Virus record (IMG/VR): IMGVR_UViG_3300045996_000713
Location: 1-32,156 of that record
Origin: a virus
DNA: 32,156 nt
Reading direction: 5' to 3' (one strand)
Part shown: piece after piece, positions 2,358 through 24,816 of the stretch
Position numbering within the stretch: position 1 is the stretch's first letter
Layout of the letters: every line of letters begins with the position of its first letter
Translations under genes and position numbers: made by a program
The notes under the pieces: generated by a model
The model's database searches: none
Told to the model about the DNA's origin: nothing
The model's input: only the letters and a program-made list of their open reading frames with translations

Positions 2358-2486
2358 ATGAGAAACAAAGTAGCAAAAGCATTGCGCAAGCAGGCTGAAA
2401 AGTTAACAGTTGGCCAAAGTCAAAAGGTTACCCGGAAGGCATACCAAGGGCTTAAGAAAGAATACAATCGTAATAAACGCAAATGA
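2358..2486 (+). CDS. Hypothetical 42-residue basic protein
   Basis: A short frame from the ATG at 2358 encodes 42 residues, about one third Lys/Arg, with a repeated helix-friendly pattern (ALRKQAEKLT, then KAYQGLKKEYNRNKRK). Its stop TGA shares an ATGA with the first glycosyltransferase-like gene, and it follows the structured leader directly. Both facts argue for real translation. Short basic proteins of this look occur near terminase genes of Bacteroidota phages, but I do not know a function. It might bind nucleic acid or serve as a leader that couples translation to the cassette. Confidence 0.6.
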   Translation: MRNKVAKALRKQAEKLTVGQSQKVTRKAYQGLKKEYNRNKRK

Positions 2487-3187
2487 CATCAATCGTTATC
2501 CCCCTCAACAACCGCTCAACAGTGCGCAACCTGGAATTGAGGTATTGCCTACGTAGTATTGAGAAGCATCTATCCGGCGTGGGTAACATCTTCATTATCG
2601 GTTACATGCCTGAGTGGGTACAAAACGTTACCAATATCCCTTTCGATGAAGATCCGCGTAACCGGTTCCGAGACCGCAATATCATGAATAAGATGTTAGC
2701 CGCATGCAAGGACGAGCGGGTGAGTGATGACTTCCTGATGGTGCATGATGACCATTTTCTGTTAGCAGACTATGAGGCGGGTAAGTTTCCTTACTATCAC
2801 TGTGGGCATATGGTGCCGGGTGAAGGGCAGTATGGAGAGACAAAACGGAATACAGAATACCTGCTTTGTCCATTACCGGGAATTCCAATATTGAATTATG
2901 ACACCCATTGCCCGATTATCTTCAATAAGGAGAAATTCTTGAAGGTCACTAAAGCCGACTGGTCAAAGTGGTACGGCTACTGCCTAAAGACCCTGTACTG
3001 CGTTATGAATAGCATAGAGGGCGAGTATATGGATGACATAAAGATTCGCATGCCGTTAACACGCGAGGGGGTAGAGGGGTTAATAGTCGGCCGCAAGTGG
3101 TTCAGTATCGGCGACCGGTGTTTCTCAGACGGGATGAAAGAAGTATTGAAAACGTTATATCCAAATAAAAGCAAGTATGAATTATGA
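2483..3187 (+). CDS. Stealth-like glycosyltransferase/sugar-phosphate transferase
   Basis: 234 residues. The N-terminus (TSIVIPLNNRS) starts a GT-A-like Rossmann strand. RNIMNKMLAAC followed by DDFLMVHDDHFLL (about 83-94) resembles the conserved D..l..nDD.ffl region of Stealth-type capsule phosphotransferases, and NYDTHCPIIFNKEKF (about 140) resembles their later H.P..f.k block. Stealth proteins transfer hexose-1-phosphates in surface polysaccharide synthesis. This protein would be a compact version. It is the first catalytic gene of the cargo block, coupled through ATGA to the 42-residue gene. Glycosyl or glycosyl-phosphate transfer is inferred; donor and acceptor are unknown. Confidence 0.6.
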   Translation: MTSIVIPLNNRSTVRNLELRYCLRSIEKHLSGVGNIFIIGYMPEWVQNVTNIPFDEDPRNRFRDRNIMNKMLAACKDERVSDDFLMVHDDHFLLADYEAGKFPYYHCGHMVPGEGQYGETKRNTEYLLCPLPGIPILNYDTHCPIIFNKEKFLKVTKADWSKWYGYCLKTLYCVMNSIEGEYMDDIKIRMPLTREGVEGLIVGRKWFSIGDRCFSDGMKEVLKTLYPNKSKYEL

Positions 3188-17845: not shown

Positions 17846-18427
17846 ATGGCCAAGTTCCTTGATGTGTTATGTGATGAGAAACTTGAAGCTCTTATTATAT
17901 CGGGCAATGCCAACAACCAACAACTCACAGAGGCGTGGATGTTAGTATTAGCTGAGTACTATGAGTTACGTGGAGACACAATTGACACGGTTGATGAGTG
18001 GTCGCTGAGCAGGGATATATTGAGATTACAAAGCCACCTGCACCTGCTCGATACATGTGTTCAGTTTCTGGCGAATAAGTACAGTGACAGCATAGCTGAA
18101 AGCGTTAGGCGGTTAGGTTACTCATTCAGGCCAGCATCTTTCGAGCCTTTGGATTATATCGGACTGCTTAACCAGGTAGTTAATAAGAGTAAGCTAAAAT
18201 ATATCCAGTTACAACAGTTTATAAAGCAGCTGGAAACAAAGATGGCAGAGGCCGGTAAAGAGAAGCCGAAAAGAGAATATTTCGAAAAGATGATTATTGA
18301 GATTGAAGAAATGCAGCGGTCGAATTATGATCTTGATGAACTAACAGTAAGCAAGTATGTACTCCTGGAAAAAAAGTATTGGCAAAAAGTTGAACAAATA
18401 AAGAAGGCACATGTCAGAACGCATTGA
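17846..18427 (+). CDS. Tail assembly chaperone-position protein
   Basis: 193 residues from the ATG at 17846. The frame is open further upstream to 17681, but the translated extension looks like an out-of-frame shadow. The protein is almost wholly alpha-helical and charged, with a central acidic helix and a C-terminal coiled-coil-like stretch (EEMQRSNYDLDELTVSKYVL). It directly precedes and overlaps the tape measure gene by 17 nt, the usual site of tail assembly chaperones. No slippery heptamer for a programmed frameshift was recognised. Confidence 0.55.
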   Translation: MAKFLDVLCDEKLEALIISGNANNQQLTEAWMLVLAEYYELRGDTIDTVDEWSLSRDILRLQSHLHLLDTCVQFLANKYSDSIAESVRRLGYSFRPASFEPLDYIGLLNQVVNKSKLKYIQLQQFIKQLETKMAEAGKEKPKREYFEKMIIEIEEMQRSNYDLDELTVSKYVLLEKKYWQKVEQIKKAHVRTH

Positions 18428-21400
18428 GAGTTTAATAAGCAAAGAGGCGCTGGCGCAATTTGAGCAGTTAGGAAAACTGACGGATGCGAATGTTTCTGCG
18501 TTTGAAAAACTTATTGCTAAAGGCGTTGAGCTAAATAAGCAACTTGGCGGCGCCACCGGTTTTAAAGACATGAATAAAGCGGCTGCTGAATTAACCGAGA
18601 ATGAAAAGGCACTACAGAAACAGCAGCAGGAGCTTGAAAAACAACAGGCAAAACTTAATCAATTATATAGCGATGAGGCAAAAAGAATTGCTGAGTTAAA
18701 GGTTCAACAGCAGGCAAGAAACAAAGAACTTGCAACGGAAGTTCAGTTGCAAAATGCCGCTAACAATAGCGTCAGCCAGGCGGCAGCTATGATTAAAAAA
18801 TTAACTACCGAACGAAATAATCTTGATCTAGCTACCATCGAAGGCAGAAAAAGACAAGCAGAGTTAAATGCCGAGATTGATAAATATAATAAGTTCATTA
18901 CTGAAAATTCAGACAAGCAGGAGAAACAAAGGCGCAACGTAGGTAACTATGGTAGTGCGTTAAAAACGCTTGAGGGGTATTTGGCAGATGTTAGAACTCA
19001 ATTAACTGCAACTCAAAAGGCGGCATCTGGTGGCTTTTCTATAAGCGCACCTGGCCCGGCGGTTAGAGCTGCCAACAGTACACCCATTCGTGCGGCTGAT
19101 AATAAGCAGCAACTGGTATCGTATAACCAAACCGTTGCTCAGACAACCGATAGAGTGCAGGACCTGGTAAAGCAGGAGCAGTTATTAAGCAGGATTGTTG
19201 AAAGTCAAATGGCCGGCTTTGCATCAGCAACAGCGGAGATTAAGAATAATGAAAAAGCCCTGCAGGCGTTAGGAGCAGCTGGCCTGCAAAATACCGAGTT
19301 CTATCAGGCGCTATTAAAAGATACCGCACAATTAAAGGATAATGTAGGCGATCTTAAAGACGAGATCAAAGCGCTTGCCAGTGATACCCGCCAATTCGAT
19401 TTATTTGCAGGTGCTGTTACTGGGCTTGTAAGCGCATTGCAGGTAGGCGCGTCAGCCGCCGAACTATTTGCCGGAGAGAATGAAGATGTGCAAAAAAGCA
19501 TTCAACGGCTCGTTGCTTTACAAAATATTTCTCAGGGCGTCCAGCAGATTGCAAATGACCTTACTACTAAAGGCACGGCATTAAATAAACTTTACAATTT
19601 CATTATAGGAGAGGGGGCTAAAACTACAAAGGCGGCAGCCGTGGCCACTACTATTAACACGGTTGCAACAGAGGGCAATGTTGTGGCAACCGAAGCTGCA
19701 ACCGTCGCAACTACTGGATTAGCTACGGCAACCAAAGTGTTACGCGCTGCGTTGATAGCAAGCGGTATAGGCTTGCTGGTGGCAGGGGTGGTTTACTTAG
19801 TCAGTAAGTTACAAGAGTGGCGGGATGCCGATATTAACCTAATAAAACACCAGGCAGAACTTAATCAGGTAACCCTTGAGTCTATAAGATTAAATAAAGA
19901 GCTAGCCGACCTTACCCGTACCGACATAGGAACAGACATTCAGGCGCTTAAAAATAGAGTCGCCGCTGCGCAGGCATATGGCAAAAGTCAAGGAGAGATA
20001 TTAGCCGCGGAGCAAGCATTATTGAAAGCCAGGCAGGAAGCTGCAACAATAAAGTTTCTTAATACGGATGGTGCTGGTGAATTAAAAGAATTAGAAAAAC
20101 AACTCAATGGTGCGGCTAAAGCTTTGGATGACTTCAATAAGCAGCAGGCTGCCATACCCGAAGATGATCGGGATAAAAAAACAGCAGATGCACAGAGAGC
20201 ATTATTACAGTCTACGTTAGATCTTACAAAGGAAAAGTATGCAGAACAACGTGTAATAGTAGATGACTACTACAACTACAATAATGAAGTAATTGCGAAG
20301 CAGTTACAGATAGAGAGGTTAAGCGCAGATGAACGCAGAAAGTATGCGCTGGAAACAGCGACCATTTCCGCTAATTCAATAATAGATGCAAACCAGCGAG
20401 CGCTCAATAATGAGGAAGCTACTTTAAAACAACGCCTGGCTTTAATGCAAAGCACCGCTGAACAGCAGAAAAGAATTGCCCGTGCGCAGAATGAGAATGT
20501 CCAGAACGACCCTGGCGCATCAGCGAATGATAGATTACTCGCTGCTAAAAATGCAGCTTACCAGATTAATAAGATTGAAAAGGACAGCCTTGAAGCTCAA
20601 CGAAAATTGCGCGAGGAATATCGAAAGAGGGATGAAAGCGCAGAGTTGCAAATTTTGAAAACAAAGTTAGAGGATTCCGCAAAGGCTAATTCATTGATAG
20701 CCGAGAATGAAAGTAAGTCCTTTGATGCAAGAACAGATGCACTTTATGCAGCCTTTGAGAATCGGCGGTCTATAATAATTGCGGAATACCAAAATGAAAT
20801 AAAGACTGCCGGGTTAACCGCAACCGAACGCATTGCTATTGAGCAAAAATACCTAAGCGATGTAAATGCGCTCACAATTGAGTATGGCCAACAACAGCAA
20901 ACTATCTACCAACAAAACACCGATAAGGTTAATGATATTATTGAGAAGGGCCAGCAGGCACGGCAGGATAAGATTGCAGGTGATGCAGCAAGCGCAAATA
21001 CCGATTTGATAAAACAGCTTGTTGCCGGGCAAATTACTTTAGAACAATACAACCGACAACGTGAACAGACTGAACACACGGCCCGTATTCTATCACTCAA
21101 AGAAGAAGTGAATAATGCAACAGCAAAGGTGTTAACCACTAAGGAAGGTACAGCTGCAAGATTTGAGGCCGAGAAAGAGCTTCGTGAAAAAACACTGGCA
21201 TTAAATGAGGAGTACAATAAGAAAGAGATTGACGCCATTACGAAGCTGAATGATCTTAAGAAAGAGTTAGCTGCGGAGTCAGTTGAAACATTTAATGCCT
21301 TAGTCAATTCCCAATTCGACAACGAATCTGCCCGCATCCAACAGCAGATGGATGAACTTGATAGACAGAAGGAGCATGATGTGCTCGTAGCAAACGCGAC

Positions 21401-22067
21401 TATTGCTAATAAGAAAGAAAGGGAGGCTGAGGTTGCAAAAATAGAATTGAAGGCTCAGCTTCAGAGAGAGCAATTAGAGAAACGTCAAAGACAAATTGAG
21501 CTTGACCGAGCACGCTTCGAGAAGGCTGCAAATATTGCGCAAATCATTTCCAGTACAGCCCTTGCAATAATTGAGGCGTTGAAAACTTACAAAGGCACAC
21601 CTCAAGCCTTTGCTGTTGCAGCAGCTATTGGAACCATAGGGGCACTAAACCTTGCTAAAGCTATCGCCGCACCATTACCAAAGTTTGCCGAAGGTACAAC
21701 TGATGCACCTGGTGGTCTATCATTGGTAGGAGACGGCTATCGAAAAGAATTAGTGATCACGCCTCAAGGTAAGGTGTTACAGACACCATCTGTGCCAACG
21801 GTTATGAATGTACCCAAACACTCAATCGTATTGCCAGATGCAAGGGCAGCCTTAGAAGGCGGCCTTATGGTGAACCAGCAGGGTAGGTTAGTAGCATCGG
21901 GTGGCGGCACAGATATGAGCAGAGTTGAGCAAAAGTTAGACACCATAGCAAAGACAATAAAGAATAAGCCTGTGCTCAATATGAACGCAAGCCAAAGTGG
22001 ACTAACAGCAATGTGGAACTATGGCGCTAACTGGGTAACATATACGGAGGATCAGGTGAGGTTTTAG
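18411..22067 (+). CDS. Tail tape measure protein
   Basis: 1218 residues, the longest gene in the window. Residues 1-180 and about 480-1060 are heptad-rich, Gln/Lys/Glu/Ala-dominated coiled coils. A hydrophobic segment near 445-465 (IASGIGLLVAGVVYLVSKL) and a second near 1065-1090 (AFAVAAAIGTIGALNLAKAI) are the membrane-like stretches common in tape measures. The C-terminal GGLSLVGDGYRKELVITPQG is a characteristic tape measure ending. The protein sets tail length and is injected during infection. It overlaps the convergent lipoprotein gene by 4 nt at its 3' end. Confidence 0.92.
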   Translation: MSERIESLISKEALAQFEQLGKLTDANVSAFEKLIAKGVELNKQLGGATGFKDMNKAAAELTENEKALQKQQQELEKQQAKLNQLYSDEAKRIAELKVQQQARNKELATEVQLQNAANNSVSQAAAMIKKLTTERNNLDLATIEGRKRQAELNAEIDKYNKFITENSDKQEKQRRNVGNYGSALKTLEGYLADVRTQLTATQKAASGGFSISAPGPAVRAANSTPIRAADNKQQLVSYNQTVAQTTDRVQDLVKQEQLLSRIVESQMAGFASATAEIKNNEKALQALGAAGLQNTEFYQALLKDTAQLKDNVGDLKDEIKALASDTRQFDLFAGAVTGLVSALQVGASAAELFAGENEDVQKSIQRLVALQNISQGVQQIANDLTTKGTALNKLYNFIIGEGAKTTKAAAVATTINTVATEGNVVATEAATVATTGLATATKVLRAALIASGIGLLVAGVVYLVSKLQEWRDADINLIKHQAELNQVTLESIRLNKELADLTRTDIGTDIQALKNRVAAAQAYGKSQGEILAAEQALLKARQEAATIKFLNTDGAGELKELEKQLNGAAKALDDFNKQQAAIPEDDRDKKTADAQRALLQSTLDLTKEKYAEQRVIVDDYYNYNNEVIAKQLQIERLSADERRKYALETATISANSIIDANQRALNNEEATLKQRLALMQSTAEQQKRIARAQNENVQNDPGASANDRLLAAKNAAYQINKIEKDSLEAQRKLREEYRKRDESAELQILKTKLEDSAKANSLIAENESKSFDARTDALYAAFENRRSIIIAEYQNEIKTAGLTATERIAIEQKYLSDVNALTIEYGQQQQTIYQQNTDKVNDIIEKGQQARQDKIAGDAASANTDLIKQLVAGQITLEQYNRQREQTEHTARILSLKEEVNNATAKVLTTKEGTAARFEAEKELREKTLALNEEYNKKEIDAITKLNDLKKELAAESVETFNALVNSQFDNESARIQQQMDELDRQKEHDVLVANATIANKKEREAEVAKIELKAQLQREQLEKRQRQIELDRARFEKAANIAQIISSTALAIIEALKTYKGTPQAFAVAAAIGTIGALNLAKAIAAPLPKFAEGTTDAPGGLSLVGDGYRKELVITPQGKVLQTPSVPTVMNVPKHSIVLPDARAALEGGLMVNQQGRLVASGGGTDMSRVEQKLDTIAKTIKNKPVLNMNASQSGLTAMWNYGANWVTYTEDQVRF

Positions 22068-22321
22068 AAACAGGCGATGTCGGTACCACCCTGATCAGTG
22101 ATAGTCCCGTTACACGGAACGCAAGATTCTTTAATTGTAACGGTGCAGGCGCAGGAGTCTTGCACTTTTTTGATTTGATCATTGGTTGGCTTGTAAACCA
22201 CCCAAACATAAATAGAGTTACTGCCTTTCATGGCTTCATAATAACAATAGGTGTCTTGCTTCTTTTTACACGCAAAAATGGATGTTGATAAGAAGATAAT
22301 GGTAATAATGAATTTGTTCAT
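22064..22321 (-). CDS. Small lipoprotein, paralogue 1
   Basis: 85 residues on the minus strand. MNKFIITIIFLSTSIFAC is a short lipoprotein signal with lipobox SIFA|C18, followed by KKK, so the mature protein would be membrane-anchored through Cys18. The mature part has six further Cys, of which the last five sit in an ordered pattern, DSCAC..., ESCVPCN... and GGTDIAC, matching the neighbouring paralogue. It overlaps the tape measure gene tail-to-tail by 4 nt. Inverted orientation inside a plus-strand late operon marks it as a moron-type gene. Phage lipoproteins of this sort often block superinfection; that role here is inference. Confidence 0.75.
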   Translation of the reverse strand: MNKFIITIIFLSTSIFACKKKQDTYCYYEAMKGSNSIYVWVVYKPTNDQIKKVQDSCACTVTIKESCVPCNGTITDQGGTDIACF

Positions 22322-22368
22322 GATTGTTTAATAAATATTAAATATGATAAAAAATAAAAAATGTAAGT

Positions 22369-22632
22369 CTATCGACACGGCACATCAATGCCGCCAGCTG
22401 TTGTTACGGATGTGTTACAAGGAAAGCATATTTCATTGACATTGATTATGCAGGAGCAGGAGTCACCTATTATTTTAACCAATGCGGGAGTTGGCTTTTC
22501 GAGCCATTCATAAGCAACGCGATTATTAAGGATAACATTCCATGAGCATTTATGCCCACTTTCATTGTTATCTTTTTTACAAGCAGGAGTAATAATAATT
22601 AAGGAGACTATGGTAATGGTAATTTTTTTCAT
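22369..22632 (-). CDS. Small lipoprotein, paralogue 2
   Basis: 87 residues from the ATG at 22632; an upstream start at 22668 would place a second hydrophobic stretch before the signal and is less likely. MKKITITIVSLIIITPAC is a lipoprotein signal with lipobox TPA|C18. The mature region shares KPT, DSCSC, ICFPCN and GGIDVPC in the same order and spacing as paralogue 1, so the pair arose by tandem duplication. It is read first in the minus-strand pair, with 47 nt between the two genes. Its expression probably depends on a promoter in the AT-rich 22633-22690 region, read leftwards. Confidence 0.75.
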   Translation of the reverse strand: MKKITITIVSLIIITPACKKDNNESGHKCSWNVILNNRVAYEWLEKPTPALVKIIGDSCSCIINVNEICFPCNTSVTTAGGIDVPCR

Positions 22633-22673
22633 AACGGCTAATATAATAATAAAGAATATGTAAAGCAAATGGC

Positions 22674-22690
22674 CGCATAACTAATTGAAA
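22674..22690 (+). promoter_or_regulatory. Weak fifth match to the palindromic element (copy E)
   Basis: The bases here match copy D at 15 of 20 positions when the window is extended by three bases, keeping AACT and ATTGAAAAT but losing the leading TT. It lies after the inverted lipoprotein pair and 22 nt from the ATG of the next tail gene. That leaves little room for a -7 box, so it may be a degenerate or chance match. Confidence 0.2.
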
Positions 22691-22695
22691 ATCAT

Positions 22696-24816
22696 ATGCA
22701 GGGTAAAGATTTCTTGTATTTTTTATTCGACGAAAACAACAACAGCTATTATCAGTACGGTGATACGGTATTGCTTTCGGCTTCGCTGAAACCGCTGGAA
22801 TTTACCCCTGATGGATGGAGGAAAATTCAAATCCAGAATCAGCGAAACGGTACATATTTCGCCATCGATCGCAGCTTTACAGTACCGTTAGAATATGTAA
22901 AGGATGGTGCTCAAATACTGAAACACATCTATTACAACTATGGTGTAGAGGCTAAGGTGTACATGGCCGTATGTGAACAACGATTGTATTTTGATGCTAC
23001 ACATTACGGATTTTATTATACGCTACTTTACCGAGGTGAAATTGATCTTGCGCAGATGAAGCATGACGGCGCGAAAGTTACGGTTAATGTTATGGAGGGC
23101 GGCATCGTTAAGTTTATAAAGGCATACGAAAACACTAAATACGAAATACCTGTTGATGTGCCTGACGCGGTTGATGTTTATATGGATGGGGTGGAGCTAA
23201 AACAGAATGCTAAGTTTATAATAATAGATCCGTCAACAACATTTAACGGCAATCACTCTGTTCCTATTTCCCTTATTGGAGACGAGACCAAAACTCTCAA
23301 TATCAAAGGGGCAGATAGGGTGCAGCTAGGGGGTAGTAGTGGTTCTGATCAGAACAATAAACTTGTACAGGATGGCCTATGGTTTTACAGGGCATCAACA
23401 AGCCAACCGGTAACAGTTACATGGGACTTTAATATGACCGCACAGCTGGCTACCGGTATTGCGCCTAATCCTACTGTTCAATTATCACTTGTCGTAAGGA
23501 ATTTAAGAGACGACGGGTCTGTGGTTAAATTTGAAGTATTAAATGAGTTTAATGGCCCTACAAACGTGTATCGAAAGAACCATTTTACAGGGCAAAAAAC
23601 TATAACCGGCATCGAGCCGGGGACTTCTCTTTACCTGTTCATGGGTATTCAAATCATAGGTAGTTCTGGCGATCGGGCTGTGTCATTCTTTTATGATACT
23701 AACGAACCTTTTGAGTTTAACATTACCGATGCGACATACACACATCCAGCCTCCACCATCAAAGCCCTGCGCCCTGCTTACGTATTACAACAACTAATAA
23801 GTAAAATATCTAACGGCGCATACACCGTTCAATCAGACTATCTAACCAATACTATCAACGATGTAGTAGTTACCTGCGGTGATGCTATTCGAGGTATAAC
23901 AGGAGCTAAAATAAAGACCAGCTTAAGAGATTTCTTTAGCTCATTCAATAGTCATTTTGGTTTAGGCCTTGGTATGTTAGGTAGTACATTACGCCTTGAG
24001 CAAAAGAGATTCTGGGTACAGTATACCGACTTTATAGACCTCGGCGAAGTGAGTAAGATGAAAGTATCGCCAGCTTCAGACCTGCTTGTAAATAATATAA
24101 AGGTCGGCACTCCTAATCAAGAATACGATGATGTGAACGGTAAGCAGGAGTTCAATACTACACACGAATATTCGGCGCCTATCACAAGAGTTGCAAAAGA
24201 GTTAAACCTTGTTAGTGTTTACCGGGCCGACTGCTATGGTATAGAGTTTACGCGCTTAAACCTCGACGGGAAAGACACAACGGACAATGATAGTGATAAC
24301 GATGTGTTCATGATTCATCTTGAAGATGCGGCTAGGGGTGATGGATTCTACCACCTTGACCGAGCGCTGAACGCGGGCGTAACCGGCTTATTATCACCCG
24401 CTACTGTCTTCAATCTTTATCTCACACCCGCGCGAGCGCTAAGGCGTAATGGCGATTATATACGATCGTTATTCTATAAGCTCGATGCAAGGTATCTGAC
24501 GTTTCAAACAACAGACAAGAACGCTGCAGTTGTGGCTGGCGGTATAACCGAGAATGCAGATGTACAAATTGCATCCCTTGACCCTGCGCTGTTCAGTTGC
24601 AATTACCTGGAATTTGAAACGAAAGTACCGGTTGACACACTGGATTTACTAAAGGCAAATCCATTAAAAGCATTTGCCGGTACATGGGCAGGATTCCCCT
24701 TTATCGGCATTCCTGATAAGGTATCGGTGCAGCCGGGGGATAATGGGTCGCAGACATTCAAGTTATTAGCCAGCCCGCAAACAGATTTAACATTATTAAC
24801 TACAATCGATGGCTAA
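22696..24816 (+). CDS. Distal tail/baseplate-position structural protein
   Basis: 706 residues, beta-rich, with no signal peptide. The N-terminal ~160 residues (DFLYFLFDENNNSYYQYGDT, then a basic LYRGEIDLAQM segment) and a central domain from about residue 230 with many Thr/Val strands resemble large tail proteins that follow the tape measure in Bacteroidota phages. The C-terminal third has LFYKLDARYLTFQTTDKN and a compact end. The position directly after tape measure and morons suggests a distal tail or baseplate hub component. No enzymatic motif seen. Confidence 0.65.
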   Translation: MQGKDFLYFLFDENNNSYYQYGDTVLLSASLKPLEFTPDGWRKIQIQNQRNGTYFAIDRSFTVPLEYVKDGAQILKHIYYNYGVEAKVYMAVCEQRLYFDATHYGFYYTLLYRGEIDLAQMKHDGAKVTVNVMEGGIVKFIKAYENTKYEIPVDVPDAVDVYMDGVELKQNAKFIIIDPSTTFNGNHSVPISLIGDETKTLNIKGADRVQLGGSSGSDQNNKLVQDGLWFYRASTSQPVTVTWDFNMTAQLATGIAPNPTVQLSLVVRNLRDDGSVVKFEVLNEFNGPTNVYRKNHFTGQKTITGIEPGTSLYLFMGIQIIGSSGDRAVSFFYDTNEPFEFNITDATYTHPASTIKALRPAYVLQQLISKISNGAYTVQSDYLTNTINDVVVTCGDAIRGITGAKIKTSLRDFFSSFNSHFGLGLGMLGSTLRLEQKRFWVQYTDFIDLGEVSKMKVSPASDLLVNNIKVGTPNQEYDDVNGKQEFNTTHEYSAPITRVAKELNLVSVYRADCYGIEFTRLNLDGKDTTDNDSDNDVFMIHLEDAARGDGFYHLDRALNAGVTGLLSPATVFNLYLTPARALRRNGDYIRSLFYKLDARYLTFQTTDKNAAVVAGGITENADVQIASLDPALFSCNYLEFETKVPVDTLDLLKANPLKAFAGTWAGFPFIGIPDKVSVQPGDNGSQTFKLLASPQTDLTLLTTIDG

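What the first reader, a model, noticed from the sequence alone, without database searches (positions are those of the whole stretch)
22064..22632. Tandem paralogous lipoproteins inverted inside the tail operon
Seen: the two minus-strand genes are the only supported genes on that strand. Both have lipoprotein signals with Cys18, and share KPT, DSC.C, E.C.PCN and GG.D..C in the same order. They lie between tape measure and distal tail genes, and the first overlaps the tape measure stop by 4 nt. Known: phage lipoproteins expressed as morons can block superinfection (for example Cor, Llp and TP-J34 Ltp types). Inference: a duplicated, Cys-rich superinfection-exclusion or receptor-masking factor, with the two copies possibly specialised for different competitors.
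Basis: partly seen in the sequence, partly recalled or inferred. Interest (0 to 1): 0.7.

Follow-up and report, generated by a model that had tools for sequence, protein, structure and literature searches.

The report
Antisense lipoprotein pair in phage tail
A phage, probably infecting a Bacteroidota bacterium, carries two small, related, cysteine-rich lipoprotein genes slipped in backwards between two tail genes; they are most likely extra cargo genes that alter the infected cell's envelope, perhaps to keep other phages out.

Summary
Two minus-strand genes (A 22064-22321, 85 aa; B 22369-22632, 87 aa) encode lipoproteins with Cys18. They are true tandem paralogues: 36% identical, BLASTP 1e-17, with six mature cysteines aligned.

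They sit in an extra, AT-rich stretch of about 628 nt between the tape-measure and distal-tail genes. Six related viral contigs and three cultured phages have 0-22 nt there. A seventh, distant relative holds a different extra gene in the same slot: a secreted protein that looks like an outer-membrane beta-barrel, followed by a terminator-like hairpin. The slot is therefore a moron site, with envelope-protein cargo in two phages.

Three close relatives carry an integrase and unrelated small lipoproteins in leftward genes beside it. That supports expression of A/B from a prophage, although the window lacks a lysogeny region.

No homologue of A or B was found in any collection searched, and structure prediction failed. 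Neither protein has the Bacteroidota surface-export signal, so a periplasm-facing, T5 Llp-like receptor-jamming exclusion role fits better than surface masking. That function is inferred, not shown. This is a new orphan family of a known kind of phage cargo gene.

The parts
22064..22321 (-). gene A: 85-aa lipoprotein, lipid Cys18, six further Cys; its stop codon lies inside the last codons of the tape-measure gene
22369..22632 (-). gene B: 87-aa paralogous lipoprotein, lipid Cys18, six further Cys at aligned positions
22638..22669 (-). Bacteroidota-type promoter-like site TTTG-N20-TATATTAG (1 mismatch to TAnnTTTG), ending 5 nt before the ATG of B; suggestive only, 11 such sites on this strand of the window
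22068..22695 (.). inserted cassette, 628 nt, 35.2% G+C against 44.0% for the window; relatives have 0-22 nt here
18411..22067 (+). tape-measure protein gene; C-terminus intact and conserved in relatives
22696..24816 (+). distal tail / virion structural protein gene; N-terminus intact and conserved in relatives

Best explanation
A moron: a cargo cassette inserted between two tail genes and read on the opposite strand. It encodes two duplicated outer-membrane lipoproteins that probably face the periplasm, their folds held by up to three disulfides. Most likely they are made in the lysogen (or early in infection) and block a host envelope component that incoming phages use, in the manner of T5 Llp and Cor lipoproteins, which bind an outer-membrane transporter from the periplasm and make it unusable as a receptor. 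During late lytic transcription the tail-operon transcript would run antisense to A/B and turn them down. Shown: the genes, their paralogy and the insertion. Strongly suggested: lipoprotein export. Inferred: prophage expression, periplasmic orientation, disulfides, exclusion and its target.
For: Real paralogues with all six mature Cys aligned. Clean insertion relative to L003-L007 and L043 and to three cultured phages, with both neighbouring proteins intact. Low G+C. The same slot in L019 holds a different exported gene that ends in a barrel-like ..AKISFGIKF and is followed by a terminator-like hairpin. Relatives G001, G003 and G004 have an integrase with leftward small lipoproteins beside it, and in G003 and G004 a leftward helix-turn-helix gene follows. 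Genes antisense to lytic genes are characteristic of prophage-expressed accessory loci (PMC7067206). T5 Llp is a small periplasmic lipoprotein with a disulfide, encoded next to a tail receptor-binding gene, and excludes by jamming FhuA (PMC9586334). No surface-export signal in A or B (compare).
Against: No sequence similarity to any known exclusion protein or PADLOC family. No homologue found at all. No confident structure. The window itself shows no integrase or repressor. The promoter match is weak and would give an almost leaderless mRNA, which is rare in Bacteroides (PMC7366714). No terminator-like site was found on the minus strand between B and the end of the tape-measure gene. No phenotype data.
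Confidence: 0.42

Rival explanations
1. Lysogenic-conversion lipoproteins that alter host envelope fitness (stress, nutrient uptake, attachment) without excluding phages.
For: In relatives, the leftward accessory genes near the integrase include unrelated lipoproteins, a GDSL/SGNH hydrolase and a DUF4468 protein, so the class is functionally mixed. L019 carries a possible outer-membrane barrel in the same slot.
Against: A position beside tail genes and very small Cys-rich lipoproteins recall known exclusion factors more than metabolic or fitness genes; this is an argument by analogy only.
Confidence: 0.28
2. TP-J34 Ltp-like inhibitors: anchored lipoproteins that bind the tape-measure protein of an incoming phage and stop DNA injection, which would explain their place next to the tape-measure gene.
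For: Adjacent to the tape-measure gene; Ltp is a prophage-expressed lipoprotein whose target is the tape measure (PMC3952083 and its reference to Bebeacua 2013).
Against: No repeat domain or serine-rich spacer as in Ltp. Ltp itself lies in the lysogeny module, not beside the tape measure, so position is weak evidence. In Gram-negatives the protein would have to act from the outer membrane.
Confidence: 0.13
3. The leftward transcript itself matters: reading past gene A into the tape-measure gene, it makes antisense RNA that silences tape measure in superinfecting sister phages, as STnc6030 of prophage BTP1 does with late genes.
For: Gene A stops inside the tape-measure gene and no terminator-like site lies on the minus strand before it; eight weak candidates in 18400-22330, both strands together, barely exceed shuffles. 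Precedent: STnc6030 (PMC7067206).
Against: Two conserved lipoprotein reading frames show selection on protein; no transcript data.
Confidence: 0.1
4. The genes act in lytic growth, for example as virion or lysis components.
For: They lie in the late region.
Against: Opposite strand to all late genes; absent from close relatives that have the complete tail region; they carry lipoprotein signals.
Confidence: 0.05

Closest known systems
T5 Llp and Cor (T1, phi80) superinfection-exclusion lipoproteins
   Same: Very small phage lipoproteins, Cys-containing, encoded beside a tail gene; Llp faces the periplasm (PMC9586334).
   Different: No detectable sequence similarity; six mature Cys rather than one disulfide; a tandem pair; antisense to the tail operon; receptor unknown.
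TP-J34 Ltp
   Same: Phage-encoded membrane-anchored lipoprotein of a temperate phage; leftward in the genome.
   Different: Ltp is in the lysogeny module, has a spacer and a repeat domain, and acts on a Gram-positive cell surface (PMC3952083).
Morons of lambdoid and P22-like phages
   Same: Independently read gene(s) inserted in a late operon, variable between relatives (definition in PMC2629481).
   Different: Here a tandem paralogous lipoprotein pair; own promoter only suggested and no terminator found.
BTP1 antisense exclusion RNA STnc6030
   Same: Transcript antisense to late genes in a prophage (PMC7067206).
   Different: STnc6030 is described as an RNA; A and B are conserved protein-coding frames.

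Membership tests
phage moron | inserted relative to related phages, with neighbours intact | tested here: met
   nine phages with 0-22 nt at the junction; C-terminus of the tape measure and N-terminus of the tail protein conserved
phage moron | base composition unlike the rest of the phage | tested here: met
   35.2% G+C against 44.0%; under 1% of equal-length windows are as low
phage moron | own promoter | tested here: inconclusive
   TTTG-N20-TATATTAG ends 5 nt before gene B; 11 similar sites on that strand, about 0.02 expected in 70 nt
phage moron | own terminator | tested here: not met
   no minus-strand terminator-like site in 21900-22800; this feature is usual rather than required
phage moron | expressed from the prophage | not testable with these tools
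   no transcriptome; the window lacks a lysogeny region
Llp/Cor exclusion lipoproteins | sequence similarity | tested here: not met
   no match in Pfam, PHROGs, NCBIfam, PADLOC or solved structures
Llp/Cor exclusion lipoproteins | small lipidated protein with Cys able to form disulfide | tested here: met
   mature 68 and 70 aa, six Cys each besides the lipid Cys; bonds themselves not tested
Llp/Cor exclusion lipoproteins | inactivates an outer-membrane phage receptor from the periplasm | not testable with these tools
   needs expression and phage challenge
Ltp-type exclusion lipoproteins | serine-rich spacer and repeat domain | tested here: not met
   neither is present in the 68- and 70-aa mature proteins by inspection
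Bacteroidota surface-exposed lipoproteins | export signal K-(D/E)2 or S-D-D-x-x just after the lipid Cys | tested here: not met
   CKKKQD and CKKDNN against the rule in PMC5080379

The most novel reading that the evidence does not exclude
A new, so far unrelated family of six-cysteine phage lipoproteins, duplicated so that the two copies act on different host transporters or different incoming phages, expressed by a transcript that also silences the tape-measure gene of sister phages by antisense.
Probability: 0.06. Interest if true: 0.75.

Novelty: new member of a known kind. Interest (0 to 1): 0.42.

Why it matters
If the inference is right, this adds an orphan lipoprotein family to the few known phage exclusion lipoproteins, and one from a phage group whose relatives include phages of Bacteroidota, where no such protein turned up in the paper searches made here. 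It also marks the tape-measure/distal-tail junction as a cargo site in this phage group, which can be surveyed directly for further envelope-acting genes.

Tried and rejected
Homologue searches of A and B found nothing: single proteins and profiles in viral contigs, the mature-domain profile in genome contigs, phage and plasmid records (only sub-significant hits), whole records of seven relatives. Two cysteine-pattern scans of viral contigs gave eight matches; reading the frames showed only short or low-complexity stretches without a lipoprotein signal, i.e. chance. A distal-tail profile found no prophage in genome contigs. Two AlphaFold models had mean pLDDT 52 and 50, too poor for a fold search, which was therefore not run. 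Sigma-70 promoters: no more than shuffles. Rfam and tRNA: none. Virion or lysis component considered and judged unlikely because of strand and absence in close relatives.

Full report
Observation. Two minus-strand ORFs lie where reported: A, 22064-22321, 85 aa, and B, 22369-22632, 87 aa from its ATG. Both begin with a basic residue or two, a hydrophobic stretch and a cysteine at position 18, the form of a lipoprotein signal. They are 36% identical (BLASTP E = 1e-17 for this single comparison). Leaving out the signal peptides, the alignment score is 127, against a mean of 26 (sd 5.5, highest 58) for 2000 shuffles. All six cysteines of the mature proteins align, as do KPT, DSCxC, ExCxPCN and GGxDxxC. 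DNA repeats show the duplication directly (51 nt, 71%, spacing 305). Codon position 3 differs most (51 of 84, against 36 and 32), as expected for two coding frames. Gene A ends 4 nt inside the tape-measure gene.

Surroundings. All other supported genes of the window are on the plus strand. The left neighbour is a tape-measure protein and the right neighbour a virion structural protein by PHROGs. Five viral contigs encode the right neighbour at 46-85% identity. In all five the tape-measure gene runs straight into it with 0-22 nt between, as it does in a more distant contig, L043, and in Polaribacter phage P12002S, Tenacibaculum phage JQ and Pseudanabaena phage Pan5. The proteins on both sides are complete and conserved up to the junction. 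No insert sequence aligns to the four close relatives beyond a few bases at its edges. The 628-nt stretch is 35.2% G+C against 44.0%. This is an inserted cassette; strictly, loss from the relatives is not excluded, but the spread of empty junctions, including distant phages, makes gain the simpler reading.

The same slot in another phage. In L019, whose tail protein is 33% identical, the junction is about 700 nt long and holds one plus-strand gene of 175 aa with a signal peptide and a C-terminus (..AKISFGIKF) like that of outer-membrane beta-barrels, followed by a hairpin and a run of T. No family matches it, so the barrel reading is by inspection. Two unrelated envelope-type cargoes at one junction argue for a moron slot.

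Lysogeny in relatives. G001, G003 and G004 encode a tyrosine integrase (Pfam). Beside it, on the strand opposite to the lytic genes, stand unrelated small lipoproteins, and in G003 also a GDSL-like hydrolase (E = 1.4e-21). Further along, in the same leftward direction, lie proteins that look like repressors; the helix-turn-helix matches in G003 and G004 are below Pfam's cut-offs and the G001 candidate has none, so this is a likely rather than proven identification. The window holds no such region; its right end maps near the right end of the G001 and G002 records. Lysogeny of the window's phage is therefore inferred from kin. The integrase-side lipoproteins show that this phage group repeatedly carries antisense lipoprotein genes; they are not detectable homologues of A and B.

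Promoter and transcript. The sequence TTTG-N20-TATATTAG, close to the Bacteroidota -33/-7 consensus (PMC7366714), ends 5 nt before the ATG of B. There are 11 such sites on the minus strand of the window, so one in a given 70 nt is expected about 0.02 times. It is suggestive, but would give a nearly leaderless mRNA. No minus-strand terminator-like site lies between B and the end of the tape-measure gene, so the transcript may continue antisense into that gene.

Likely working. A and B are probably exported and lipid-anchored. By the published rule for Bacteroidota (PMC5080379), surface lipoproteins have acidic residues just after the lipid Cys; CKKKQD and CKKDNN do not fit it, so a periplasm-facing position is more likely. 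The rule was established in Capnocytophaga, Bacteroides and Flavobacterium, and the host here is unknown. Six conserved cysteines suggest three disulfides, which fits the periplasm. The closest working model is T5 Llp, a small periplasmic lipoprotein that jams the receptor FhuA and excludes further phage (PMC9586334). A role against the tape measure of incoming phages (as Ltp), a general host-fitness role, and an antisense-RNA role are rivals.

Limits. No homologue was found in viral, genome, phage or plasmid collections at the sensitivity available, so no family-wide conservation test was possible and AlphaFold gave poor models. The degenerate-pattern searches reach only close relatives, so absence is weak evidence. 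Host assignment to Bacteroidota rests on relatives of the tail protein and is itself an inference.

Verdict. A real, clean and somewhat unusual moron with an orphan protein pair. The kind is known, the protein family has no known relatives, and the function is open.

Noticed in passing
L019:7361-7888: A 175-aa secreted, beta-barrel-like protein with a terminator-like hairpin after it occupies the same tape-measure/tail junction in a distant relative.
   Followed up: partly
L027:11090-14966 (G003), L033:3598-6845 (G004), L023:13899-16060 (G001): Leftward accessory genes beside the integrase in related phages: varied small lipoproteins, a GDSL/SGNH hydrolase (G003) and a DUF4468 protein (G001), none detectably related to A/B.
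   Followed up: partly
L031:6656-6835 (G004): A 59-aa Cys-rich lipoprotein ORF (CKKESYSCYVC..) on the plus strand directly after a terminase-like gene, another possible cargo site.
   Followed up: no
window 2483-3187: A 234-aa protein with a below-cutoff match to Stealth_CR2 (E = 3.8e-6); an ORF of the same length stands in the aligned region of G004.
   Followed up: no
L038 (Pseudanabaena phage Pan5): The best match to the distal tail protein in the phage records (31.5%) is recorded from a cyanobacterium, while the named cultured hosts of the next matches are mostly Bacteroidota; the host record may be worth a look.
   Followed up: no
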